Part shown: positions 8,667 through 54,204 of the stretch, one piece after another
Layout of the letters: each line of letters starts with the position of its first letter
Position numbering within the stretch: the stretch's first letter is position 1
Assembly (NCBI RefSeq): GCF_005938105.1
Contig: NZ_VCPE01000013.1
Span: 109,230 to 173,229, forward strand
Length of the DNA stretch: 64,000 nucleotides
Origin: Brucella haematophila
Lineage (GTDB): Bacteria; Pseudomonadota; Alphaproteobacteria; Rhizobiales; Rhizobiaceae
Direction: 5' to 3'
Notes under the pieces: generated by a model
The model's input: the letters and a program-made list of their open reading frames with translations, nothing else
Databases searched by the model: none
Told to the model about the DNA's origin: nothing
Made by a program: the position numbers and the translations under genes

Positions 8667-8788
8667 GTCCGTATTTACTCGTACGAAGGTGATGCAATAA
8701 GGAGAGTCGATATTTAATGGCGACCTTCACCACGTATTGGCGAAAGCGTCAACCTTTTGCGGATGAAAAGCCTGAAAGCGAGAGTTTC

Positions 8789-9451
8789 ATGTCAGATATC
8801 GTCACGAACCTGAACACGGTCAAGGCCGCAATCGCCACTGCCGAAAAAGAAGCGCATCGTAACAAAGGCTCGATCACGCTCGTCGCCGTGTCGAAAACCT
8901 TCGATGCGGATGCGATCCGCCCGGCGCTCGATGCCGGACAGCGCGTTTTCGGCGAAAACCGCGTGCAGGAAGCACAGAGCAAATGGCCTGAACTGCGCGA
9001 AGCCTATTCCGGCATCGAACTGCATCTGATCGGCCCGCTGCAATCGAACAAGGCCGCCGATGCCGTTGCCCTCTTCGACGTCATCGAAACCGTCGACCGC
9101 GAGAAGATCGCAGCAGCCCTTGCCGACGAGATCAATAAGCAGGGCAAGAGCCCGAAACTCTATGTGCAGGTCAATACGGGTCTGGAAGAGCAGAAGGCCG
9201 GCATTGCGCCGAAGGATGCCGTTGCGTTCGTCACACGCTGCCGCAGCGAACATGGCCTCGCCATCGAAGGACTGATGTGCATTCCACCGGCAGATGAAAA
9301 TCCGGGACCGCATTTTGCCCTGCTGGAAAAGCTCGCCCGCGAAGCTGGTGTCGAAAAGCTCTCCATGGGCATGTCAGGCGATTATGAAACCGCCATCGGC
9401 TTCGGTGCGACTTCGGTTCGTGTCGGCTCGGCGATTTTTGGCGGCAGGTAA
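8789..9451 (+). CDS. yggS: YggS/PROSC family PLP homeostasis protein, C-terminus rebuilt by an insertion
   Basis: Cytosolic pyridoxal-5'-phosphate binding protein of the YggS/PLPBP family, which buffers PLP and has no known enzymatic activity. The 220-residue sequence has the PLP lysine in VAVSK (about residue 35), FGENRVQEA, HLIGPLQSNK and MGMSGD. The start at 8789 matches family proteins. The in-frame start at 8717 adds a non-homologous tail. The last codons read SAIFGGR then stop at 9451, whereas the second copy of this 3' end at 10862-10917 continues in the same frame as GGRSYASPA. The present C-terminus therefore appears truncated by a few residues through an insertion, probably without loss of function. 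Confidence 0.93.
   Translation: MSDIVTNLNTVKAAIATAEKEAHRNKGSITLVAVSKTFDADAIRPALDAGQRVFGENRVQEAQSKWPELREAYSGIELHLIGPLQSNKAADAVALFDVIETVDREKIAAALADEINKQGKSPKLYVQVNTGLEEQKAGIAPKDAVAFVTRCRSEHGLAIEGLMCIPPADENPGPHFALLEKLAREAGVEKLSMGMSGDYETAIGFGATSVRVGSAIFGGR
9414..9444 (+). repeat. Left 31-bp direct repeat (3' end of yggS), putative att-like site
   Basis: Bases 9414-9444, within the last codons of yggS, are identical to 10862-10892. The flanks differ immediately on both sides (9413 is T against C at 10861; 9445 is C against A at 10893). The repeat bounds the AT-rich insert. Confidence 0.9.
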
Positions 9452-9473
9452 AGCGGCGATGTTTTACAGCTAT

Positions 9474-9487
9474 AATTCTCGAGAATT
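9474..9487. promoter_or_regulatory. 14-bp perfect palindrome overlapping a consensus -10 hexamer
   Basis: AATTCTCGAGAATT is a perfect palindrome at 9474-9487, and TATAAT occurs at 9471-9476. Both lie upstream of the first insert gene (9538). No good -35 hexamer is visible at 16-18 bases, so this is a candidate promoter/operator only. Confidence 0.35.
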
Positions 9488-9537
9488 CAGCGTAACATTA
9501 TGGCGTTCTTCAAGCGTAATCCAGCGAGATTGCTTAG

Positions 9538-10011
9538 ATGGAAGTATCAATTAAAAATTTTCTTAACAACGGCTACCTGACAATCGGAAAAAGCATGGGA
9601 GAAAACGTGTGGGGTATCGGCATTTCGAATTACTTTGATCCCAACACTTGCTCATGGAATATATCAGAGAATTCAGAGAATGAACCCACGACCATACAAC
9701 TACAATCATCATTTAGTACATCCAGCGGCGGCCTTTATTTAGGAATGGGAAGCAACAGCATAGAGCTGGATGGATACGATCTCCGCTACGCCGTATTATC
9801 CAACGATGAAAGTAACTTAATAGGCCCTTATAAAATAGCCCCCACCACCGTAGATTTAATTGGTATAATTTGGTCAACTATAGTTGATAGCAGAGATGAA
9901 AATTGGAAACTCTTTTCTATTCAGAACGATAAATCAAATTTATACTTTTTTGACAATGTAAAACAGTCTGCTATATACGATGAAATGTTTTGCATAATAG
10001 GAACTATGTAA
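9538..10011 (+). CDS. Unknown AT-rich protein 1 of the yggS insert
   Basis: A 157-residue protein not recognised as any known family. It has no signal peptide and no clear membrane span, and is rich in Ser, Asn, Ile, Asp and aromatic residues. The pattern suggests an all-beta fold. It aligns over most of its length with the protein at 10226: LTIG near the N-terminus, two tryptophans, PT-IQ, G-YL, SN-I, GY-L-Y, then LF--(x)NDKS--YF. Codon use is unlike its neighbours. No clear Shine-Dalgarno precedes 9538, so the start is less certain than for its paralogue. Transfer from an AT-rich donor is inferred. Function is unknown. Confidence 0.7.
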   Translation: MEVSIKNFLNNGYLTIGKSMGENVWGIGISNYFDPNTCSWNISENSENEPTTIQLQSSFSTSSGGLYLGMGSNSIELDGYDLRYAVLSNDESNLIGPYKIAPTTVDLIGIIWSTIVDSRDENWKLFSIQNDKSNLYFFDNVKQSAIYDEMFCIIGTM

Positions 10012-10225
10012 AACTGAAATCATATATTTCGTCATACTTATTTTTACCTCGGGTTGCCTCCGGGCATGACTGGTCATTCCGATATCACAAGCAGCACCAG
10101 TATGAACGAGAACGCGTAAGATCGACAATTTGACCTAATAGAAGAACAGTAATACTAAAAGTATTAATTGATAAATAATATTAAAATTTTCTGATTCAAA
10201 TCATCAAGCTTGAGGAGAGTAACCT

Positions 10226-10705
10226 ATGGATGATAATGGATTATTTGGAACATTTGGTTTTTTGACGAAAGATCGAAAGAATTTTCTAACAATAGGCGAT
10301 AATATAGATGAAAAAACATGGGCTGTTATCCTTACAAAAGATTCCGATTTCTATAGTACTCGTTGGAACCTTAATTATGACGAACGTTACCCTACAGCTA
10401 TTCAGTATACAAAAAGCTCGGACGCATTTGAAGCAGGGCCTTACCTTTGCGTATCAAGTAATACTATCGTAAAAAATGGATATAAACTCCATTATTCCGA
10501 ACTTTCCTATGGAAAAATAGAAGACCAGTTAAAATTTAATATTAAATCTATCGATACGGATCGTGATTATGTCAATATTTACGAAGATAAAAATTCTAAT
10601 TATACGCTTTTTTATTTAGAAAACGATAAGAGTGCTTATTTCGCTGAAATAAATTCAAGTGAAACGCCAGAGGGCGCAAAATTCTTGATGCCGGCATACG
10701 CATAA
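10226..10705 (+). CDS. Unknown AT-rich protein 2 of the yggS insert, paralogue of protein 1
   Basis: A 159-residue protein with a strong ribosome binding site (GAGGAGAG at about 10210-10217), which supports real expression. It shares with the 9538 protein the ordered motifs FLTIG (residues about 20-24), Trp about 32 and 47, PTAIQ, GPYLCVSSNTI, NGYKLHYSELS and LFYLENDKSAYF. Charged and aromatic residues alternate as in beta-sheet proteins. There is no signal peptide, transmembrane segment or recognisable catalytic motif. The 214-bp gap from protein 1 suggests separate expression control. A beta-trefoil or lectin-like fold is a guess from the W/G-YL pattern only. Confidence 0.75.
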   Translation: MDDNGLFGTFGFLTKDRKNFLTIGDNIDEKTWAVILTKDSDFYSTRWNLNYDERYPTAIQYTKSSDAFEAGPYLCVSSNTIVKNGYKLHYSELSYGKIEDQLKFNIKSIDTDRDYVNIYEDKNSNYTLFYLENDKSAYFAEINSSETPEGAKFLMPAYA

Positions 10706-10861
10706 GTAATAATAATTAAAAGTAGTTCATTTATTAGAAGTCGGTGCAATCATTGTATATGACTGCGGCTGATGTACAGGCACATTCGAACGCAATTGTG
10801 CTCTTATAAAGAGACAAGCCGATCAAAAGTGCTATCCATGGTATATTGGAGATCATCCAAC

Positions 10862-10892
10862 CGGTTCGTGTCGGCTCGGCGATTTTTGGCGG
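10862..10892 (+). repeat. Right 31-bp direct repeat of the yggS 3' end
   Basis: Perfect copy of 9414-9444, spaced by 1,448 bp. It is followed directly by the presumed native yggS tail. Confidence 0.9.
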
Positions 10893-10917
10893 ACGTTCCT
10901 ATGCGTCTCCGGCCTGA
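10862..10917 (+). pseudogene. Orphaned native 3' end of yggS
   Basis: Read in the yggS frame this segment encodes VRVGSAIFGGRSYASPA and a TGA at 10915-10917. It is most simply the original C-terminus, displaced by the insert. In the uninterrupted arrangement yggS would have overlapped the convergent FUSC gene (stop at 10899) by 19 bp. Confidence 0.7.
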
Positions 10918-11426
10918 ACCTCACTGCGCGCTTTGATGCGACCGATGATCCGCGTGTAGACCCAGGCAAGCGCAATCGCCACGGCGCATCCAAGCGCGAT
11001 TTCGACAAGCCTTGAAAGGGCGAGCAGCAATTCCTCATTGCGCGTCTGGGCAAAGCGTCCCGCATCCATGACAATCACCACGGTTGCGGGCGCCAGCCGC
11101 CAATTGATCGGATATTTGTCGATCATCAGGATGAGCAACACCGTCAATGCTGCGCCGAACAGGCTGGCCAGCGGAGAATAACCGAATATCCAGATCGTCA
11201 GCATCCCGATGGTGCAACCGACCGCCGTGTTGATCGCCCGGGCCTGCGCCAATGCCAGCGTTGCGCGCACATCCGGATCGGAAATGATCAGGACAGTAAT
11301 CACGGCCCAGATTGGATGTTCAATCCCCGCCCAGCGAAGTGCGAACCAGCAAATAAGGCAACCGAGCAATGTCTTCGAGGCATAAAGGAGTGCCTTGCCG
11401 GGATTGGTCAGATGCGGAAGCGTCAT
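10899..11426 (-). CDS. FUSC family (aromatic acid exporter-like) membrane protein
   Basis: A 175-residue inner-membrane protein matching one FUSC-type domain. It has four to five hydrophobic spans (LLGCLICWFAL, AVITVLIIS, AVGCTIGMLTIWIFG, LFGAALTVLLILMI, LGCAVAIALAW), with the family's P-W/AVITV pattern after span 1. FUSC proteins relate to aromatic acid and fusaric acid efflux, usually with a membrane-fusion partner that is not present here. The start at 11426 follows GAGG. The C-terminal codons lie next to the right repeat of the yggS insert. The substrate is unknown. Confidence 0.8.
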   Translation of the reverse strand: MTLPHLTNPGKALLYASKTLLGCLICWFALRWAGIEHPIWAVITVLIISDPDVRATLALAQARAINTAVGCTIGMLTIWIFGYSPLASLFGAALTVLLILMIDKYPINWRLAPATVVIVMDAGRFAQTRNEELLLALSRLVEIALGCAVAIALAWVYTRIIGRIKARSEVQAGDA

Positions 11427-11460: not shown

Positions 11461-11748
11461 TCAGTGCAGAACGATCTCCCCTTGCACATTCCTCCAGTCC
11501 GATGGGCCGAGCAAGCGGCAATGCGTATAGGTCACCGAATGCAGCGGCCCATCGATCTCCCGTTTCCAGAATTCGATGAAATGATGCAGCACCGGAAATT
11601 CCGGCGCGACATCATATTCCTGCCAGACAAACAGCTGAAGCAGATGCGGATGATCCGGCATGTGATAGAAGAGTTTTGCCGTCGTCAAACCATAACCGGC
11701 GAGTTGCAGTTCGAAGGCCGATTTCGCGTGAAAAGCGGACGTCGTCAT
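11461..11748 (-). CDS. usg: Usg family protein
   Basis: A 95-residue cytosolic protein of the alphaproteobacterial Usg family, whose member genes often lie near tryptophan biosynthesis genes; molecular role unknown. Family-typical stretches are ELQLAGYGLTTAK, YHMPDHPHLLQ, FVWQEYD and EFWKREIDGPLHSV. The start at 11748 follows AGGGGAAA. The longer reading to 11850 adds an unrelated, AT-rich leader. It lies 34 bp from the FUSC gene start at 11426 and may be cotranscribed with it. Confidence 0.88.
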   Translation of the reverse strand: MTTSAFHAKSAFELQLAGYGLTTAKLFYHMPDHPHLLQLFVWQEYDVAPEFPVLHHFIEFWKREIDGPLHSVTYTHCRLLGPSDWRNVQGEIVLH

Positions 11749-12015
11749 GGCGATTTCCCCTTTTTGTGAAGAGCCATATATTCGGCTCCTGTATTCGAGA
11801 TAATCACTCCAAATGGTTTTTAAAGTGTAAAAACAATATGTTAGCAACAAATAGCTATGAGTGCTGCCAATTCAAAGATTTAGCCTGCGTCATTGTGGAC
11901 GGGAGACGCACCAATCGTCTAATTTACCTTCACCGCTTAGGAAGCTAGATAAGACCCAACAGTGGTTACGAACCACGCACTGACGAGAGGACGTTGGTGA
12001 AACTTGGAGGAAATG

Positions 12016-20502: not shown

Positions 20503-20787
20503 ATGGGTGAACGCCAGCAGGCTGGCATAGGCGAGGATGCCGGCGGTCCGGGACGCGAGCGCCAGGAAGAAGCGCGCCGTATTCTGGATCGGCTGGACCG
20601 CGAACAAACCGGGGCGGACGGCCTCGTCCGTCGCGGTTTTGCCCGCACAGCCAATCACCTTGCTGCCGGGGACACACCGGAAAACGACCATATCGAAATC
20701 TGGGCCACCCGCATCGGACGAACCCTCGGCCTTCTCATCACGCTGGCGATCATCGTCTGGCTCGTCTTTTATCTCATGCAAAGCTAG
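20503..20787 (+). CDS. Small C-terminally anchored membrane protein, unknown function
   Basis: A 94-residue protein with a charged, Arg/Glu-rich N-terminal two thirds and one hydrophobic span near the end (LGLLITLAIIVWLVFYLM, about residues 75-92). This gives a tail-anchored topology with the N-terminus in the cytosol. It ends 7 bp before pdxY, so the two are likely cotranscribed. GAGG at about nine bases supports the start. I recognise no family. The pairing with pdxY may be conserved in relatives but cannot be tested here. Confidence 0.72.
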   Translation: MGERQQAGIGEDAGGPGRERQEEARRILDRLDREQTGADGLVRRGFARTANHLAAGDTPENDHIEIWATRIGRTLGLLITLAIIVWLVFYLMQS

Positions 20788-20794
20788 GTCTAAC

Positions 20795-21679
20795 ATGACG
20801 CTTTCTGCGCCTTCGGACGCGACAACCGTTATTGTCATTTCAAGCCATGTCGTGCGCGGTTCGGTGGGCAACCGAGCCGCTGTCTTCGCATTGGAAACAC
20901 TGGGGTTTCCAGTCTGGGCCGTGCCAACCGTGGTCCTGCCCTGGCATCCCGGCCATGGCCCTGCCGGGCGCATCGTGCCGCCGCCGGAAGAGTTTCTGCG
21001 CCTGATGCAGGATCTTCAGCGTGCTCCATGGCTTGGTGAAGTCGGCGCAATCCTGACCGGCTATCTTGGCCACCCGGAACAGGCGGCAGCCGTTGCCGAG
21101 CTGGTCAAGGGCGTCAAGGCCCAAAACCCGAACGCCGTCTATCTCTGCGATCCGGTGATTGGTGACGAGAAAGGCCTCTATGTGCCGGAGGCAACCGCTA
21201 TCGGCATCCGCGACAAGCTCATGCCGCTTGCCGATATAGCAACACCCAACCGGTTCGAACTGTCCTGGCTGACCGGCGTGCCACTGGAAGACAACAAATC
21301 GCTGATGGAAGCTGCACTGGACGCCGGACCGGCCACCATGCTGGTTACTTCCGCCTTCCCGCTGATGGCGGGCAGTATCGGCAATATATTGCTGACGCCG
21401 ACCATGGCGCTGATGGCCGAGCACCGCCGTGTGGATGGTCCGACCAACGGACTTGGTGATCTGACTTCGGCTGTGTTTCTCGCACGCCGCCTTTCCGGGC
21501 AGTCGGAAGAAAAGACCTTGCAGAGCACCACGGCTGCCGTATTCGAGATCATGGCGCGGTCGGCAAAACGCGGCGCCGATGAGCTGATGCTGGAAGCTGA
21601 CGCCTCCAGCCTTGCCACGCCCATGGCCATGGTGCAGACGCGACGCCTTGTGCACCCAACCAAGGGATTGCGCGCTTGA
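20795..21679 (+). CDS. pdxY: Pyridoxal kinase
   Basis: Phosphorylates pyridoxal (and related vitamers) to PLP in the B6 salvage pathway. The 294-residue ribokinase-fold protein has VISSHVVRGSVGNRAA at residues about 13-28, DPVIGDEKGLYV, TPNRFELSWLTG, and the anion hole/catalytic Asp in GPTNGLGDLTSA (about 212-224). The in-frame upstream start at 20537 overlaps the small membrane gene and encodes a non-homologous leader, so 20795 is chosen. It ends overlapping the next gene by 4 bp. Confidence 0.93.
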   Translation: MTLSAPSDATTVIVISSHVVRGSVGNRAAVFALETLGFPVWAVPTVVLPWHPGHGPAGRIVPPPEEFLRLMQDLQRAPWLGEVGAILTGYLGHPEQAAAVAELVKGVKAQNPNAVYLCDPVIGDEKGLYVPEATAIGIRDKLMPLADIATPNRFELSWLTGVPLEDNKSLMEAALDAGPATMLVTSAFPLMAGSIGNILLTPTMALMAEHRRVDGPTNGLGDLTSAVFLARRLSGQSEEKTLQSTTAAVFEIMARSAKRGADELMLEADASSLATPMAMVQTRRLVHPTKGLRA

Positions 21680-22410
21680 CGCGTGAAGCGACGCCCGTTG
21701 CTGGCGTCGATGGCTGCCCCGGCGGCTGGATCGCTGTATCAGGTGAAGGCAGCAGCATGCGTGCCGACGTCTTCCGTAGCTTTGCCGCATTGATTGCAGC
21801 GCTGCCGGACAATGCCACCATCGCGGTCGACATGCCGATCGGGCTGCCCGAAACAGGCACACGGGCAGCCGAACGCGCAGCGCGGGTGCATCTTGGTGCC
21901 AGACAGTCGAGCCTCTTTTCCATTCCGCCACGCGAAGCCGTTTATGCCGAAGACTATCGCGAAAGCTGCGCGCGTTCGCTGGAGCGGTCCGATCCGCCAC
22001 GCAAGGTTTCCCGGCAGGCTTTCGGGCTGTTCCCGAAAATCCGCGAACTAGACACGGTTCTGCGCAGCGAGCCAGAATTGCGCGAGCGTGTAATCGAATC
22101 TCACCCCGAACTCGCCTTCGCCATGCTGAACGGCGGGCCCAGTGGTCCCAGCGCCATGACGCTGCCCAAGAAAATTAAAGGCCTTGTCAATCCGGAAGGC
22201 ATGGCGGAACGCCAAGCCTTGCTGATACGTCGCGGCCTGCCGGAAAATTTTGTCAGTCTGCGCGCTCCGCGAGGCGCGAAAGATGATGACTTTCTCGACG
22301 CCTGCGCCATGTTTCTCGTGGCCAGACGTTATACGCACGGCAAAGCCCGAGCACATCCTGCCCATGCCGAGCATGATGCACACGGTCTGCGAATGACGAT
22401 ATGGGCCTGA
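21676..22410 (+). CDS. DUF429 family protein (predicted RNase H-like nuclease)
   Basis: A 244-residue protein of DUF429, predicted to share the RNase H fold. AGVDGCPGGWIAV at about residues 8-20 and AVDMPIGLPE at about 52-61 hold the acidic residues expected in the active site. SIPPREAVYA, ESHPELAFAMLNG and DDDFLDACA follow. The TTG start at 21676 overlaps the pdxY stop (TTGA), indicating translational coupling. The role and substrate are unknown. Confidence 0.83.
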   Translation: MTREATPVAGVDGCPGGWIAVSGEGSSMRADVFRSFAALIAALPDNATIAVDMPIGLPETGTRAAERAARVHLGARQSSLFSIPPREAVYAEDYRESCARSLERSDPPRKVSRQAFGLFPKIRELDTVLRSEPELRERVIESHPELAFAMLNGGPSGPSAMTLPKKIKGLVNPEGMAERQALLIRRGLPENFVSLRAPRGAKDDDFLDACAMFLVARRYTHGKARAHPAHAEHDAHGLRMTIWA

Positions 22411-22454
22411 TCATTTTGATTGATCTCGGTTTTCGATAAGGATATTGGAACGCC

Positions 22455-23111
22455 ATGGCTGATCTTCCGGACACACTCCTCTCGGGTTACAAAACCTTCA
22501 TGACGGAGCATTTCGCACGGGAAACCGCGCGCTATCGCGAACTGGCGGAAAAAGGACAATCACCGGAAACTCTGGTTATTGCCTGCTGCGATTCCCGTGC
22601 TGCTCCCGAAACAATCTTCAACTCTGCGCCCGGCGAAATCTTCGTCCTGCGCAATGTTGCCAATCTCATCCCCCCCTACGAGCCCGATGGCGAGTTTCAT
22701 GCGGCATCGGCTGCGCTGGAATTTGCCGTGCAAAGCCTCAAGGTGAAGCATATCGTGGTCATGGGCCATGGACGATGCGGCGGCATCAAGGCTGCGCTCG
22801 ATACGGAAAGCGCGCCTCTGTCGCCCGGTGATTTCATCGGCAAATGGATGAGCCTGATTGCGCCAGCGGCTGAAGCCGTCGGCGGCAACAGCCTGATGAC
22901 GCCGACCGAGCGCCAGACAGCGCTGGAGCGCATTTCGATCCGCTATTCGCTGAATAATCTGCGCACCTTCCCTTGCGTCGATATTCTGGAAAAGAAGGGT
23001 AAGCTCAGCCTGCATGGCGCGTGGTTCGATATTTCGACCGGCGAGCTTTGGGTGATGGATCACCAGACGGGCGACTTCAAACGCCCTGAAGCTGGCGAGC
23101 CCATTTTGTAA
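22455..23111 (+). CDS. Beta-class carbonic anhydrase
   Basis: Zinc enzyme interconverting CO2 and bicarbonate. The 218-residue length is usual. The zinc ligands are the Cys of CCDSRA (about residues 44-49, with the Asp-Arg dyad) and His and Cys of MGHGRCGG (about 103-110). There is no signal peptide, so it is cytosolic. It is separated by 44 bp from the DUF429 gene and probably ends the pdxY-DUF429 transcript. A bidirectional terminator follows. Confidence 0.93.
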   Translation: MADLPDTLLSGYKTFMTEHFARETARYRELAEKGQSPETLVIACCDSRAAPETIFNSAPGEIFVLRNVANLIPPYEPDGEFHAASAALEFAVQSLKVKHIVVMGHGRCGGIKAALDTESAPLSPGDFIGKWMSLIAPAAEAVGGNSLMTPTERQTALERISIRYSLNNLRTFPCVDILEKKGKLSLHGAWFDISTGELWVMDHQTGDFKRPEAGEPIL

Positions 23112-43024: not shown

Positions 43025-43067
43025 CATGATCCCGAAAAGTGTGAAACGGTTTTCGGACAAGATCATG
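43025..43067 (+). repeat. Dispersed palindrome, subfamily A, tandem copy 1
   Basis: CATGATCCCGAAAAGTG at one end, GATCATG at the other, a 43-bp hairpin. The tandem partner starts 57 bp on. Both lie in the mmsA-LysR promoter region. Confidence 0.9.
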
Positions 43068-43081
43068 TTCAGGCAAGAGAC

Positions 43082-43124
43082 CATGATCCCGAAAAGTGCG
43101 AAGCGGTTTTCGGACAAGATCATG
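43082..43124 (+). repeat. Dispersed palindrome, subfamily A, tandem copy 2
   Basis: Differs from copy 1 at only a few bases (GTGCGAAGCGG against GTGTGAAACGG). It ends 17 bp before the LysR start codon, so it is within the 5' leader. Confidence 0.9.
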
Positions 43125-43141
43125 TTCAGGTGAAGTACATT

Positions 43142-44023
43142 ATGAACTGGGATGATATTCGCATATTCCTCGCGGTGGCGCGCTCGGGCCAGATTCTGGG
43201 TGCAGCCAAGCGGCTTGGCCTGAACCACACCACTGTGGCGCGGCGGCTGACGGCGCTTGAAACTGCGCTTTCCACCACGCTTCTGACACGCCGCACCAAT
43301 GGCTCGACACTGACGCAGGCGGGTGAGGAATTTCTGCTCGCCGCCGAGCGCATGGAAGCGGAAATGCTGTCCGCCCGCGCGCAGGTTGGCAATGCGGATG
43401 TCGCGGTTTCGGGCACGGTGCGCATAGGTGCGCCAGACGGTTTCGGCGTGACCTTTCTTGCACCGCGCCTCGCCCGGCTGACACAGCAATATCCAGACCT
43501 CACCATCCAGCTGGTGCCCGTGCCGCGCTCCTTCTCGCTGTCCCGGCGCGAGGCCGATATTGCCATCACCGTTGAACGTCCAGATCAGGGGCGGCTCATT
43601 GCGCGCAGGCTGGTCGATTATACGCTCGGCCTCTATGCCCATCGCAGCTATCTGGAAGCCAATGGCACACCGGAGAATTCAGAAGACCTCAACCACCATC
43701 GCCTGATCGGCTATGTGGAAGATCTGGTCATCAACCCGTCGCTTGCCTATGCGCCCGAAATCAGCCGTGACTGGAAACCGGCTTTCGAGGTGTCGAGCGC
43801 ATTGGGACAGGTGGAAGCGGTGCGCGCAGGTGCGGGCATCGGTATTCTGCATTCGTTCATCGCCCGCGCAGACCCCGATCTTGTGCCGGTTCTGCCCGAC
43901 CGGGTGATCCGGCGCGCCTATTGGCTCGCCTATCATGAATCCGCCCGCACATTGCGGCGTGTGACAGCCGTATCCGCCCTCATCTCCGAACTGGTGGAAG
44001 GCGAAAAATCGCTGTTCAGCTGA
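43142..44023 (+). CDS. LysR-type transcriptional regulator
   Basis: A 293-residue regulator. The winged helix is at the N-terminus (WDDIRIFLAVARSGQILGAA, then LNHTTVARRLTALE, residues about 2-60). A periplasmic-binding-like effector domain spans about 90-290 (VRIGAPDGFGVTFLAPRL). The start at 43142 follows AGGTGAA. Upstream in-frame codons lie inside the palindromic repeats and are rejected. Divergent placement suggests it controls mmsA. The effector is unknown. Confidence 0.9.
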   Translation: MNWDDIRIFLAVARSGQILGAAKRLGLNHTTVARRLTALETALSTTLLTRRTNGSTLTQAGEEFLLAAERMEAEMLSARAQVGNADVAVSGTVRIGAPDGFGVTFLAPRLARLTQQYPDLTIQLVPVPRSFSLSRREADIAITVERPDQGRLIARRLVDYTLGLYAHRSYLEANGTPENSEDLNHHRLIGYVEDLVINPSLAYAPEISRDWKPAFEVSSALGQVEAVRAGAGIGILHSFIARADPDLVPVLPDRVIRRAYWLAYHESARTLRRVTAVSALISELVEGEKSLFS

Positions 44024-44035
44024 AATAAGGCATGC

Positions 44036-44680
44036 TCAATTGAGCCGCATATAGGCGACCATCACGCCAACAATCATCGCCGCCGGAACGAACAATGCGT
44101 CAAGGCCGATGAACGCATGGCCGAGGCCACCTGCAACTGCGCCGAGCATCAAGGCCAGCCAGACGGAAACATGCTGCAACCAGCGCCATTTTGGCGTTTC
44201 GCCGCGCAGCGAACAGGCAAGGTCGGCGGCGGCATTGAAAAGCGTTCCGGTCACATAGGTCACGCCAAGGCGCGCCGCGCCTATGGGCTGTACGGCGGCA
44301 TTCTGCGCGCCCATGGCGGCGGCGAGCAGCAGCACCGGCTGGATGAACATCGATCCCTCCCGCCGTAGCACGCCCACTGCCAGCAAGATCACCACGACGC
44401 TGGCCATCACATAGAGGCTGCCCCAGCGCCCATAGGCACGCACGGTCAGCGTGCCGAAAAACGCGCCAAGGAAGAACAATATGATGAGGATCGCGGGAAA
44501 CCAGACCAGCACGGAGCCTTGAACGCCGGGTTGCCCCGCGAGTGCGACGCCGAGCTGCGTGGTATTGCCGCTCATGAAGGAAGCGAAGAAACCGCCCAGT
44601 TGCAGAAAGGCTATCGCATCAACGAAACCAGCCGATGCGGTAAGAACCAGACCGAGCGACAGTTTGGAATTCGGTGTCAT
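44036..44680 (-). CDS. DUF1275 (YoaK) family membrane protein
   Basis: A 214-residue inner-membrane protein with six or more spans. DUF1275 hallmarks are GFVDAIAFLQLGGFFASFMSGNTT (core FVDAIAFL and FMSGNTTQLG), GAQNAAVQPIGAARLGVTYVTGTL (core GAQNAA and TYVTGTL). Function is unknown; some annotations suggest transport. It is convergent with the LysR gene and separated from the GlsB-like gene by the terminator at 44706-44730. Confidence 0.88.
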   Translation of the reverse strand: MTPNSKLSLGLVLTASAGFVDAIAFLQLGGFFASFMSGNTTQLGVALAGQPGVQGSVLVWFPAILIILFFLGAFFGTLTVRAYGRWGSLYVMASVVVILLAVGVLRREGSMFIQPVLLLAAAMGAQNAAVQPIGAARLGVTYVTGTLFNAAADLACSLRGETPKWRWLQHVSVWLALMLGAVAGGLGHAFIGLDALFVPAAMIVGVMVAYMRLN

Positions 44681-44705
44681 TTCACTGGACTTCGGGAAAG
44701 GAACC

Positions 44706-44730
44706 GACCCGGCTTCGACAAAGCCGGGTC
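44706..44730 (-). terminator. Terminator of the GlsB-like gene
   Basis: GACCCGGCTT/AAGCCGGGTC stem with a short loop between the GlsB-like stop (44753) and the DUF1275 start. Confidence 0.65.
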
Positions 44731-44752
44731 TTGCAAGAAATGGAACTGATCC

Positions 44753-45007
44753 TCAGACGCGTTTGACGATGCGCAGAATGATCAGAAGTATTGCCGCGCC
44801 GATGAATGCATTGATGATCGAGGCAATGATACCGCCGCCGACGGAAAAGCCGAGGCGCGGCAAAAGCCAGCCTGCAAAGAACGCACCGATCACGCCGACA
44901 ATAATATTGCCGATCATGCCGAAACCGCCACCCTGCACGACCTTGCCGGCCAGCCAGCCTGCGACGAGACCGACAAAAAGAAATACGATTAGACTTCCAA
45001 CATCCAT
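44753..45007 (-). CDS. GlsB/YeaQ/YmgE family small membrane protein
   Basis: An 84-residue protein of the transglycosylase-associated/GlsB family: three hydrophobic spans rich in Gly (FLFVGLVAGWLAGKVVQGGG, IIVGVIGAFFAGWLLPRLG, IIASIINAFIGAAILLIILRIVKRV, last given by its core AFIGAAILLIILRIVKRV). It is linked to stress responses in other bacteria. The start at 45007 follows GGAGGGAG. The reading from 45079 passes through a palindromic repeat and is rejected. Confidence 0.9.
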   Translation of the reverse strand: MDVGSLIVFLFVGLVAGWLAGKVVQGGGFGMIGNIIVGVIGAFFAGWLLPRLGFSVGGGIIASIINAFIGAAILLIILRIVKRV

Positions 45008-45023
45008 GCGCTTTTCTCCCTCC

Positions 45024-45070
45024 AGAGCACATCCCGAAAAGTGTGAAACGGTTTTCGGGCGAGATGTGCG
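45024..45070 (+). repeat. Dispersed palindrome, subfamily A
   Basis: AGAGCACATCCCGAAAAGTG to GAGATGTGCG, upstream of the GlsB-like gene. It shares its central block with the copies at 43025, 51455 and 54159. Confidence 0.88.
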
Positions 45071-51405: not shown

Positions 51406-51500
51406 GCGCTTCCGACCTGATTGCGTCGGATCAACGCTCCAAACATTTACTTTACGCACATCCTATCCGAAAACCGTTTCACACTTTCCGGGATGTGCGC
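51406..51500 (-). repeat. Composite palindromic repeat between rsfS and rlmH
   Basis: An imperfect palindrome (about 51406-51440) is followed by a subfamily A hairpin (51455-51500, GCACATCC... to ...GGATGTGC). The same two-part architecture occurs at 54105-54204. Confidence 0.78.
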
Positions 51501-51530
51501 AACGCCTGCCAGACCTTAGCGGTCGACGGA

Positions 51531-51902
51531 TCAATGGACGGTTTCCAACGCTCGTTCGTCGTCGAAATCGTCATCAAGCCATATCTTCTCGATATTGTAG
51601 AAGTCACGGACTTCCGGACGGAAGATGTGCACGATGATATCGCCCGTGTCGATCAGGACCCAATCGCCACTGTCTAGCCCCTCGACCCGCACATTCTTGC
51701 AGCCCGCTTCATTGAGCGCCTGCAAAAGATGGTCGGCCACAGCCGTCACGTGACGGTGCGAACGGCCCGACGCGACGATCATATAATCGCCGATCGTTGA
51801 TCTTCCGCGAATGTCGATGGGGATGATGGATTCTGCCTTGGAGTTTTCGAGACTGGCCAAGGCCGCGTCGAAGGTCTGGGACACGAGATCGGTCTCGTTC
51901 AT
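51531..51902 (-). CDS. rsfS: Ribosome silencing factor RsfS
   Basis: Binds L14 and blocks subunit joining when nutrients are scarce. A 123-residue DUF143 protein with KAESIIPIDIRGRSTIGDYM (about 21-40), ASGRSHRHVTAVADHL, GDWVLIDTGDIIVHIFRPEV and FYNIEKIWLD, all hallmark pieces. The ATG at 51902 follows a weak GGTCAGG. A longer N-terminus would need a non-standard start. Adjacent to rlmH. Confidence 0.94.
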   Translation of the reverse strand: MNETDLVSQTFDAALASLENSKAESIIPIDIRGRSTIGDYMIVASGRSHRHVTAVADHLLQALNEAGCKNVRVEGLDSGDWVLIDTGDIIVHIFRPEVRDFYNIEKIWLDDDFDDERALETVH

Positions 51903-52124
51903 CCTGACCAGTGAAGGCGCGTGGAGAGCCTTCTTCTCAAGTGCTGTTCTCAGTGTATTGCCTTTCTAACAAGAACAACCCGATACGGCAGTAAAAGCAC
52001 CGTACGAACCTAAGATAGGCAGAGTCCCTGTTTTGTTTCAAGAGTCACGACCTTACAGGGCCGTTCACTTTTTCGATTATCTCGCTTTTTTTGCATATAT
52101 CTTGTTTAAACCGTCACCAAACTA
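51903..52124. other. Intergenic region between nadD and rsfS
   Basis: 222 bp, AT-rich in its right half. No repeat, terminator or further coding frame stands out. It should carry the rsfS promoter. Confidence 0.4.
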
Positions 52125-52784
52125 TCAAGATCGTGTGCCGGACTTGCGAATGGCGCTCGATGACAGCGATGAGCGCGGCCCGTGGATGAAAGTCCATGCA
52201 GGCGGCGTGCGGCGCGCCAGCATCGGCGCATATTGCTCATCAAGACGGCTGTGCGAAAAAGTCTGCGCCATGCGCGACGACAAATATGCCAGCGTCGAGC
52301 CAGGACGGTCGATCACCGCAATAGGAAAATTATTGGCGATTTCGCGCCAGCGCTGCCAGCGATGGAAGGACGCCAGATTGTCCGCGCCCATCACCCAGAC
52401 AAAATGCACACCGGGATTGGCGTCGCGGATCAGGGCCAGCGTATCGGCGGTGTAGCGCACATTGAAGGCAGCTTCGAGCGCCGTCACCTTGATACGCGGA
52501 TCGCTGGCGATTTCTTCGCTCCACCGCAGCCTGTCGGCCAGAGGTGCCAGTTCACGGGTGTCTTTCAGCGGATTGCCCGGCGTCACCATCCACCAGAGTT
52601 GATCGAGTTTCAGCCGCCGAATGGCGATCTCCGCGACCAGAGCGTGACCGCCATGCGGCGGATTGAACGAACCGCCGAACAGGCCGACCGCCATGCCTTT
52701 CTCGGCATGCGGCATGCGCAAATATTTTGCGTCAACGTCCGGATATTGTTCTTTCAGTGCGGAAAGCCCGAAACCAAAGCGCAT
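52125..52784 (-). CDS. nadD: Nicotinate-nucleotide adenylyltransferase
   Basis: Adenylates nicotinate mononucleotide in NAD synthesis. 219 residues with the nucleotidyltransferase motif GLFGGSFNPPHGGH (about 34-47), WVMGADNLASFHRW and a final SSLSSSAIR (SSTxIR type). The start codon at 52784 shares its A with the proA stop (TGATG), so translation is coupled. A shorter start at 52715 (MPHAEKGM) is possible. Confidence 0.94.
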   Translation of the reverse strand: MRFGFGLSALKEQYPDVDAKYLRMPHAEKGMAVGLFGGSFNPPHGGHALVAEIAIRRLKLDQLWWMVTPGNPLKDTRELAPLADRLRWSEEIASDPRIKVTALEAAFNVRYTADTLALIRDANPGVHFVWVMGADNLASFHRWQRWREIANNFPIAVIDRPGSTLAYLSSRMAQTFSHSRLDEQYAPMLARRTPPAWTFIHGPRSSLSSSAIRKSGTRS

Positions 52785-54067
52785 CAGCTTCGAATCTGCC
52801 CGTTGCCGCGAACACGATATTTGAACGAAGTGAGCTGTTCGACGCCGACGGGGCCGCGTGCGTGCATCTTGCCGGTGGCGATCCCGATTTCCGCACCCAT
52901 GCCAAACTCACCGCCATCCGCAAACTGCGTCGAGGCATTGTGCAGCAAAATGGCCGAGTCGATTTCATTGAAGAACCGCGCAACCGCTTCCGCATCCTCG
53001 GCGACAATGGCTTCGGTGTGATGCGAGGAATAGCGGTTGATGTGCCGGATCGCACCATCAACGCCATCGACAAGCGTCACTGAAATGATCGCGTCGAGAT
53101 ATTCGGTGGACCAGTCTTCTTCACTCGCCGCAATGGCTGCCGGATAAAGCACCTTCACCTCTTCGCTGCCACGGATTTCGCAACCCTTGGCGGCCAGATC
53201 TTCAAGGATCGGCACGAGATGTGTCGAGGCGACCGCGCGATCCACCAGCAGCGTTTCAGCCGAGCCGCAAATGCCTGTGCGTCGCATCTTGGCGTTGACC
53301 GCGATCTTGCGCGCCATGTCGAGATCTGCGGTCTTGTCGATATAAAGATGGCAGATGCCTTCCAGATGCGCGAAAACCGGCACGCGCGCTTCCGACTGAA
53401 CGCGTGCGACGAGGCTTTTGCCGCCGCGCGGGACGATGACGTCGATAGCGCCGTCGAGCCCTTTCAGCATTTCACCGACCGCCGCGCGATCCGTCACCGG
53501 CACGATCTGGATGGAATCGGCAGGCAAGCCGCCAGCTTCCAGTCCTGCCACCAGTGCCTTGTGAATCGCGGCAGACGAATGGGCCGAATCCGAACCACCG
53601 CGCAGGATCACCGCATTGCCAGCCTTAAGGCAGAGCGCACCGGCATCCGCAGTGACATTGGGGCGGCTTTCATAAATGACGCCGATAACACCAAGCGGCG
53701 TGCGCACGCGCTCGATATGCAGACCATTGGGGCGATCCCATTCGGCAATCACCGCACCGACCGGATCGGGCAATGCTGCAATGGCGCGGATGCCTTCCGC
53801 GATTCCCTCAATGCGCTTATCATCCAGCGTCAGGCGATCCACGAAGGAAGCGGCCATGCCGCTCGCGGCAGCGTTGGCCAGATCAATCTTGTTGGCTTCG
53901 AGGATGGCGTCGCGGCTTTGGAGAATGGCATCGGCTGCAGCCAGAAGCGCCTTGTTCTTCTGCTCCGTGCCAGCAATCGCCAGTGGTGCTGCGGCGGCTT
54001 TCGCCTTGCGGCCCACTTCGGCCATGATCGCGGCTATGTCGCTTCCAGCTTCCACTTTATTCAGCAT
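52784..54067 (-). CDS. proA: Gamma-glutamyl phosphate reductase
   Basis: Second step of proline synthesis, reducing glutamyl phosphate to the semialdehyde. A 427-residue aldehyde-dehydrogenase-fold enzyme with [20 protein letters not shown] (20 residues), [21 protein letters not shown], and the catalytic Cys in [13 protein letters not shown] (about 272). It lies between proB and nadD on the same strand. A composite repeat separates it from proB. Confidence 0.96.
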
Positions 54068-54104
54068 CCTCTCCCCGCCTTTCCCTGTTCAGGCATTTTC
54101 GGTC

Positions 54105-54204
54105 AGAGCGCGTTTCGATCTGATTGAATCAGATCGGCGCTCTCAATGTTTATTTTAACGCACATCTTATCCGAAAACCGTTTCACACTTTTCGGGATGT
54201 GCGC
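54105..54204 (-). repeat. Composite palindromic repeat between proB and proA
   Basis: The first part (54105-54143) starts AGAGCGC and ends GGCGCTCT around a GATCTGATT/AATCAGATC core. The second part (54159-54204) is a subfamily A hairpin. The whole fills most of the proB-proA gap. Confidence 0.82.

What the first reader, a model, noticed from the sequence alone, without database searches (positions are those of the whole stretch)
9414..10917. AT-rich islet integrated into the 3' end of yggS, flanked by a perfect 31-bp duplication
A 1,448-bp segment of foreign composition lies between two identical 31-bp copies of the yggS C-terminal codons. The left copy keeps yggS translatable with a new stop (ending GGR), and the right copy continues in the same frame as the presumed native tail (GGRSYASPA, stop 10915-10917). 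This is the geometry of integrase attachment sites in gene ends, but yggS is not a usual target and no recombinase is present. It could be a small non-autonomous (satellite-like) element or cargo left after element decay.
Basis: partly seen in the sequence, partly recalled or inferred. Interest (0 to 1): 0.85.

Follow-up and report, generated by a model that had tools for sequence, protein, structure and literature searches.

The report
Swapped-in orphan gene islet behind yggS
A 1.4-kb AT-rich stretch with two related genes of unknown function was inserted into the very end of the yggS gene of a Brucella/Ochrobactrum-group bacterium; some relatives carry very different versions of the same gene family at the same place, so this looks more like a spot where genes are swapped by recombination than like the remains of a phage-like element.

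Summary
Two identical 31-bp copies of the yggS 3' end (9414-9444, 10862-10892) flank 1,417 bp of 36% GC, and the two closest held relatives have the empty site. The integrase/satellite reading is weaker. No recombinase or recognisable remnant lies in the islet; no second yggS end was seen in 29 genus loci (1.5 kb downstream) or 80 wider loci (mostly 10 kb); the core was not found as a phage attachment site. Five members lie between yggS and usg/acs; one stands where relatives have a DUF429 gene, between pdxY and a carbonic anhydrase gene. In one other carrier (G018) the yggS tail is also unusual and the last 56 bp differ unusually from its sisters. Best reading: a recombination-driven gene-exchange site; in the window genome a one-sided capture through the yggS end doubled 31 bp (inferred). 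The fold may be a beta-trefoil (weak evidence); function is unknown.

The parts
8717..9451 (+). yggS (PLP-binding protein; Ala_racemase_N), last codon and stop (AGG TAA) supplied by the islet
   Evidence: ORF; Pfam PF01168 E 5e-22; 96-98% protein identity to G016/G030
9414..9444 (+). left 31-bp direct repeat (inside yggS)
9445..10861 (.). 1,417-bp AT-rich insert, absent from the closest held relatives
   Evidence: GC 0.36; empty site in G030, G016; no convincing nucleotide relative in 119 other genomes, best non-self E 8.5e-4 over 23 bp
9538..10011 (+). ORF1, 157 aa, member of an unnamed genus-restricted family
   Evidence: leave-one-out 47.0 bits, rank 1
10226..10705 (+). ORF2, 159 aa, paralogue of ORF1 (33% over 123 aa), with GAGGAG shortly before its ATG
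   Evidence: E 5e-15; leave-one-out 28.6 bits, rank 1; sequence
10862..10892 (+). right 31-bp direct repeat
10893..10917 (+). displaced native yggS tail (R)SYASPA-stop
   Evidence: same kind of tail directly after the single 31 bp in G030, G016
10899..11426 (-). FUSC-like gene, also patchy at this locus in the genus
   Evidence: Pfam FUSC_2 E 3e-16; found at this locus in 10 of 35 genomes, the window's included
11461..11850 (-). usg, right-hand neighbour gene of the variable interval
   Evidence: Pfam Usg E 2e-39
20537..22410 (+). second site in this genome, without a family member: pdxY followed by a DUF429 gene; in G021 a family member stands in the place of the latter

Best explanation
The interval between yggS and usg/acs is a site of gene exchange in the Brucella/Ochrobactrum genus. 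Its cargo includes a fast-diverging, genus-restricted family of about 160-residue proteins without an evident signal peptide. Alleles and neighbouring genes are swapped by recombination anchored in the conserved flanking genes, without a recombinase of their own (inferred; some support in G018). In the window genome a DNA fragment carrying a yggS 3' end plus two family genes paired with the last ~31 bp of the resident yggS. Its other, non-homologous end was joined at the left edge of that paired stretch, so the 31 bp were doubled, yggS received a new Arg-stop end, and the old tail was pushed 1.4 kb downstream (mechanism inferred). What the proteins do is unknown; a beta-trefoil binding or immunity-type protein is the leading guess.
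For: Empty sites and displaced tail. Same family at the same locus in G021, G031, G018 and a second G021 copy at pdxY-can. Homology by leave-one-out HMM: each of the six members ranked first against 13,229 real ORFs and 3,000 shuffles; five at 28.6-47.0 bits, G031 marginal at 16.1 versus 15.9 for the best shuffle. At pdxY-can the G021 gene stands where 10 of 30 loci read have a 770-820-bp gap filler (DUF429 by Pfam in the window, the only one scanned), with no flanking duplication, so members can arrive without att-like repeats. In G018 the last 56 bp of yggS differ from sister G008 at 17/56 against 69/544 elsewhere (one-sided p 0.0009). Of 30 genomes tested against their nearest relative (5 of the 35 left out) it was the only one below p 0.1, and by that stretch it is nearest to G024, G020 and the window genome. 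The FUSC gene of its sisters G008 and G033 is gone in G018. None of 80 wider loci has a second yggS end downstream. Published parallels: hotspots without mobility genes and with recombining flanks (PMC5635113, passages); proposed homology-facilitated illegitimate recombination building gene arrays (PMC5361080, passages).
Against: No donor with a GGR-stop yggS end followed by these genes was found. The window genome shows no imported tract beyond the 31 bp. In G018 the sisters' yggS end is itself somewhat unusual (G033 and G008 differ from others by a median 0.232 in the last 56 bp, 0.18 in the rest; G018 0.196 and 0.197), so part of the signal may be theirs; G018's end is not significantly closer to the window genome than the rest of its gene (p 0.28); p 0.0009 becomes about 0.03 after correction for 30 tests. 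The usg side is ambiguous, since that end of usg varies fast in general (control G033 vs G011 25/110 against 19/187). Two of the other three carriers at this locus have a normal yggS tail. The illegitimate route is described as far rarer than ordinary recombination (PMC5361080, passage). A 31-bp exact duplication around an islet is also what a site-specific recombinase would leave.
Confidence: 0.55

Rival explanations
1. Site-specific integration: the 31 bp is an att core, used by a tyrosine recombinase acting in trans or since lost. The islet is a non-autonomous element or the remnant of a larger one, and its left end evolved to restore yggS.
For: Exact duplication in gene-end geometry; restored FGxR-stop end; native tail displaced to the far end. 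Long att cores are known in this genus: phage BiPBO1 shares 46 bp with its attB beside a tRNA-Lys gene (PMC4729917, passages). The genome has 13 tyrosine recombinase matches elsewhere. G018 also joins inside the last yggS codons, with an end like that of the window's clade.
Against: No recombinase in the islet; an integrase-like 33-aa frame scored -1.2 bits, about 16,700th of 46,843 reported fragments. No second yggS end in 29 genus loci with 1.5 kb downstream or in 80 wider loci (three of these are genus members also in the 29). Core pattern in viral contigs only inside an unrelated phage ORF. A family member sits at pdxY-can without flanking repeats, and in G021 and G031 at the yggS locus no second yggS end stands out from shuffles.
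Confidence: 0.25
2. The islet is ancestral at the locus, and the closest relatives lost it by deletion between the 31-bp repeats.
For: Direct repeats of 31 bp can recombine (general knowledge); the family is present in three other genus members.
Against: 27 of 35 genus genomes keep the xYxx(P/S)A tail directly on yggS (my count); the left Arg-stop end is an outlier within the genus; the islet has no convincing nucleotide relative in the genus.
Confidence: 0.08
3. Assembly artefact or chance duplication.
For: Reads were not available.
Against: Islet and both flanks lie on one 173-kb contig; the cargo has homologues at the orthologous locus in other assemblies; a 31-bp repeat is short for a read-based misassembly (inference).
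Confidence: 0.03

Closest known systems
Integrase-free gene-exchange hotspots between core genes (PMC5635113, passages seen)
   Same: Variable cargo between the same two conserved genes, no mobility gene in the window's islet, a possible recombination signal in a flanking gene of one carrier
   Different: Here a 31-bp gene-end duplication is left behind, and part of the cargo is one family of unknown proteins; only species representatives were available, so strain-level turnover was not measured
Homology-facilitated illegitimate recombination building gene arrays (T6SS immunity arrays of Vibrio, PMC5361080, passages seen)
   Same: Conserved upstream anchor, non-homologous right end, old sequence pushed downstream, tandem divergent paralogues
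   Different: No secretion cluster next to it in the stretch read; what is pushed downstream is only a gene tail; the anchor is a housekeeping gene end
Integrative elements at gene 3' ends (for example Brucella phage BiPBO1, 46-bp att beside tRNA-Lys, PMC4729917, passages seen)
   Same: Identical core on both sides, host gene end restored
   Different: 1.4 kb, no integrase, protein-coding target, no second example found
Beta-trefoil proteins (lectins, fascin, FGF fold)
   Different: No sequence family match; the ORF1 model gave no such match; no internal repeat signal

Membership tests
Integrative (site-specific) mobile element | identical core repeats at both ends | tested here: met
   31/31 identical
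Integrative (site-specific) mobile element | recombinase gene or recognisable remnant inside | tested here: not met
   two ORFs without a convincing family match; a profile of 13 own recombinases gives -1.2 bits for the only motif-like frame
Integrative (site-specific) mobile element | same target used by other elements, or the core carried by phages | tested here: not met
   none of 29 (1.5 kb downstream) and none of 80 (10 of them with under 10 kb downstream) loci has a second yggS end; viral contigs 1 match in a phage ORF; phage records 1 match at E 0.9. A diverged copy or an unsampled element would be missed
Integrative (site-specific) mobile element | precise excision as a circle | not testable with these tools
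   needs PCR or reads
Recombination-driven gene-exchange hotspot | different cargo between the same core genes in different genomes | tested here: met
   35 genomes: FUSC in 10, family genes in 4 (window genome in both), a 139-aa ORF in G023, an autotransporter in G011 beside FUSC, 21 compact
Recombination-driven gene-exchange hotspot | excess homologous recombination in the flanking core genes | tested here: inconclusive
   G018 yggS end p 0.0009 uncorrected, the only one of 30 genomes below 0.1, but its sisters' end is itself unusual; window genome p 0.20; usg ambiguous
Homology-facilitated illegitimate recombination product | homologous anchor on one side, non-homologous join on the other | tested here: inconclusive
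   left end supplies a yggS-like Arg-stop end; the right join shows no further likeness to the native flank before the 31 bp (my reading); donor not found
Beta-trefoil protein | three-lobed beta fold | tested here: inconclusive
Orphan immunity-gene array | matching effector elsewhere | not tested
   no effector search was made

The most novel reading that the evidence does not exclude
The yggS-acs and pdxY-can intervals are dedicated exchange sites for a previously unnamed, hypervariable family of small beta-trefoil-like proteins in Brucella/Ochrobactrum. New alleles are captured by one-sided pairing with as little as ~31 bp of the yggS end, a route that mimics an integrase att site without any integrase, and the genes diversify under conflict with predators, phages or competitors.
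Probability: 0.25. Interest if true: 0.65.

Novelty: new member of a known kind. Interest (0 to 1): 0.45.

Why it matters
It is a clean case where att-like geometry (identical gene-end repeats, restored gene end, displaced tail) may arise without an integrase, a warning for automated island callers. It also defines a fast-diverging protein family, unnamed in the libraries searched, with an unusual pattern: nearly unrecognisable between species of one genus, yet found at the same chromosomal place. Isolate genomes of this group beyond the species representatives used here should allow the route of capture to be settled by sequence comparison (inference).

Tried and rejected
Integrase remnant: the frame at 10018-10119 reads HIFRHTY...GHSDI, like Tyr-recombinase box II (motif recalled). 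The strict pattern was in 0 of 1,500 shuffles and at one other place in 2.48 Mb of fetched DNA, a sequence fetched as an integrase; a looser one was in 1 of 1,500 shuffles and 15 distinct places. But Pfam, PHROGs and PDB sequence searches and a profile of 13 own integrases do not support it. Rejected as coincidence; the motif was noticed after the fact.

Donor search: no convincing nucleotide relative of the insert in 119 other genomes, of which at most three candidates each were scored, in plasmids (only yggS parts) or in phages (two short chance matches). tblastn of ORF1 and two other members in plasmids and of ORF2 in phages gave nothing beyond one E 0.7 match. A genome-contig scan with ORF1+ORF2: 69 pattern matches, none confirmed. 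A viral-contig scan with the family alignment could not be run.

Family libraries: PADLOC, PHROGs and NCBIfam were run on five members, Pfam on the same five; the sixth (L058) was not scanned. Weak matches of single members: DruK E 0.013 (PADLOC), ten PHROGs at E 0.017-0.57, HAD-IIIC E 0.15 (NCBIfam), Cap15 receptor E 0.32 and a rhamnosidase N-domain E 0.053 (Pfam). Not followed.

Weak profile matches in G034, G019 and G026 (E 0.08-0.8, 51-53 residues) were dropped from the family count; they did not return with the six-member profile at E up to 5.

G023 as another insertion in the yggS end: its tail is GGRS-stop and a tail-like string stands before usg when compared with G010 (score 28 against a maximum of 24 in 200 shuffles), but not when compared with G009 (14) or G024 (17); suggestive only. 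Its 139-aa ORF looked to me like a peptidase-inhibitor lipoprotein, but Pfam gave no match, so I make no claim. G001's odd tail (TNPSPN) was not explained.

Imported flanks around the G021 pdxY-can islet: identity to the window is not clearly lower at the edges. Internal three-fold repeat in the proteins: none seen. ORF1's model matched no trefoil.

Literature (open-access library only): yggS + integrase + genomic island 0 papers; yggS + attachment site + integrase 0 papers; Brucella/Ochrobactrum/genomic island/yggS, any 3 of 4 terms: 56 papers, none of the 10 listed holds yggS; Ochrobactrum + beta-trefoil: 1 paper, on wastewater enzymes by its title and abstract.

Full report
What is there. 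Two exact 31-bp copies of the yggS 3' end lie at 9414-9444 and 10862-10892; no other match with up to 3 mismatches occurs in the genome. The 1,417 bp between them have 36% GC against 55% in the flanks, and no other repeat pair of 18 bp or more around AT-rich DNA turned up in 451,951 bases of the genome. The left copy ends yggS with Arg-stop; the right copy continues into the tail SYASPA-stop, which overlaps the end of a FUSC gene. In the two closest held relatives, G030 and G016, the same 31 bp occur once and read directly into that tail and FUSC. By my count, 27 of 35 genus genomes have a comparable six-residue tail. So DNA was inserted in the window's lineage, and the right-hand tail is the original one. 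Identity to G030 and G016 is 95-97% on both sides with no imported tract visible. The genus is Brucella/Ochrobactrum: contig lengths tie G024, G003 and G017 to Ochrobactrum sp. Q0168, O. chromiisoli and Brucella tritici.

What the cargo is. The two ORFs (157 and 159 aa) are paralogues (33% over 123 aa) without a Pfam match; PADLOC, PHROGs and NCBIfam gave only weak matches of single members, none for ORF1 (five members scanned). Reading the yggS-acs interval in relatives showed AT-rich ORFs of 156-165 aa at the same place in G021, G031 and G018. A profile of these five found a sixth, again in G021, between pdxY and a carbonic anhydrase gene. Leave-one-out profiles rank every member first among 13,229 real ORFs and 3,000 shuffles; five are clear (28.6-47.0 bits), G031 is marginal (16.1 against 15.9). 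Over the genus the six-member profile finds six members in 4 of 35 genomes. In a sample of 394 genomes of the taxonomic family, eight of them of this genus, it finds 3 genomes, all of this genus, 1 of 109 genera (E up to 0.01). The insert has no convincing nucleotide relative in 119 other genomes, plasmids or phages.

How the locus behaves. Between yggS and acs the 35 genomes hold FUSC (10), family genes (4, the window genome being in both groups), a 139-aa ORF (G023), an autotransporter (G011, besides FUSC) or almost nothing (21). In G021 and G031 the family gene follows a normal yggS tail. In the window genome and in G018 the joint lies inside the last yggS codons. At pdxY-can the G021 gene stands where 10 of 30 loci read, the window's among them, have a 770-820-bp filler, a DUF429 gene in the window; only the last bases of that filler remain in G021, and there is no repeat. 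Replacement is my reading; many other genus members have a short gap there. Both sites lie about 12 kb apart in the window.

How it got there. In G018 the last 56 bp of yggS differ from its nearest relative G008 at 17 of 56 positions against 69 of 544 elsewhere (one-sided p 0.0009). Among 30 genomes compared with their nearest relative (five of the 35 were left out) this is the only case below 0.1, and by that stretch G018 is nearest to G024, G020 and the window genome. I read this as the yggS end travelling with the islet by homologous recombination. Against it: the yggS end of the sisters G008 and G033 is itself farther from others than usual (median 0.232 against 0.18 in the rest), so part of the signal may be theirs, and G018's closeness to the window genome there is not significant on its own (p 0.28). 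The usg side points the same way, but that end varies fast in general. In the window genome nothing beyond the 31 bp can be called imported. The simplest account there is one-sided: a fragment with a yggS end paired with the last 31 bp, and its other end was joined at the edge of the pairing, doubling the paired stretch. The insertion and the duplication are shown; the order of events, the donor and the absence of a recombinase at the time are inferred.

The integrase alternative. It predicts the geometry and the restored gene end, and long att cores are known in the genus (BiPBO1, 46 bp; PMC4729917, passages). Its further predictions failed where I could test them. There is no recombinase or recognisable remnant in the islet. 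There is no second yggS end in 29 genus loci with 1.5 kb downstream (24 with one copy and 5 with none within 6 mismatches). There is none in 80 wider loci, the best 80 of 591, of which 10 have less than 10 kb downstream; the longest shared string was 16 nt, and a diverged copy without a shared 13-mer would be missed. In the family sample only the window genome has two strict-pattern matches, while the pattern itself matched only 13 of 394 genomes, so that test is narrow. The core pattern in viral contigs hits only a long phage ORF, a tape-measure-like protein by recall. I keep this rival at 0.25.

Placement. The locus works like the integrase-free exchange hotspots of PMC5635113 (passages), and the capture is like the homology-facilitated illegitimate recombination proposed for Vibrio immunity arrays (PMC5361080, passages), which that paper describes as rare. 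Membership in the second is not proven, as no donor is known. The cargo family appears unnamed in the libraries searched. Overall: an ordinary kind of process with an unusual, deceptive footprint and a new small protein family.

Noticed in passing
L058:4969-5436 (G021); window 20537-23111: Second site of the family: in G021 an AT-rich member stands where the window has a DUF429 gene, between pdxY and a carbonic anhydrase gene. Both family sites lie next to vitamin B6 genes (yggS, pdxY; roles recalled), perhaps by chance.
   Followed up: partly
L035:880-1562 (G023): yggS ends GGRS-stop there, followed by a filler with a 139-aa ORF of unknown family and a yggS-tail-like string just before usg; possibly another insertion in the yggS end.
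   Followed up: partly
L039:1746-4838 (G011): A 1030-aa autotransporter ORF sits between FUSC and usg, one more cargo in the same interval.
   Followed up: partly
window 43029-45058 and 51464-54191: Short dispersed repeats (28 and 24 bp; CGAAAAGTGTGAAACGGTTTTCGG-like, in both orientations) in the window.
   Followed up: no
G031, G014, G013: usg was not found between yggS and acs in these genomes, so the right neighbour of the interval also seems to be lost at times.
   Followed up: no
L016 (G001): yggS ends GGRTNPSPN there, unlike the genus tail, with usg right behind it.
   Followed up: no
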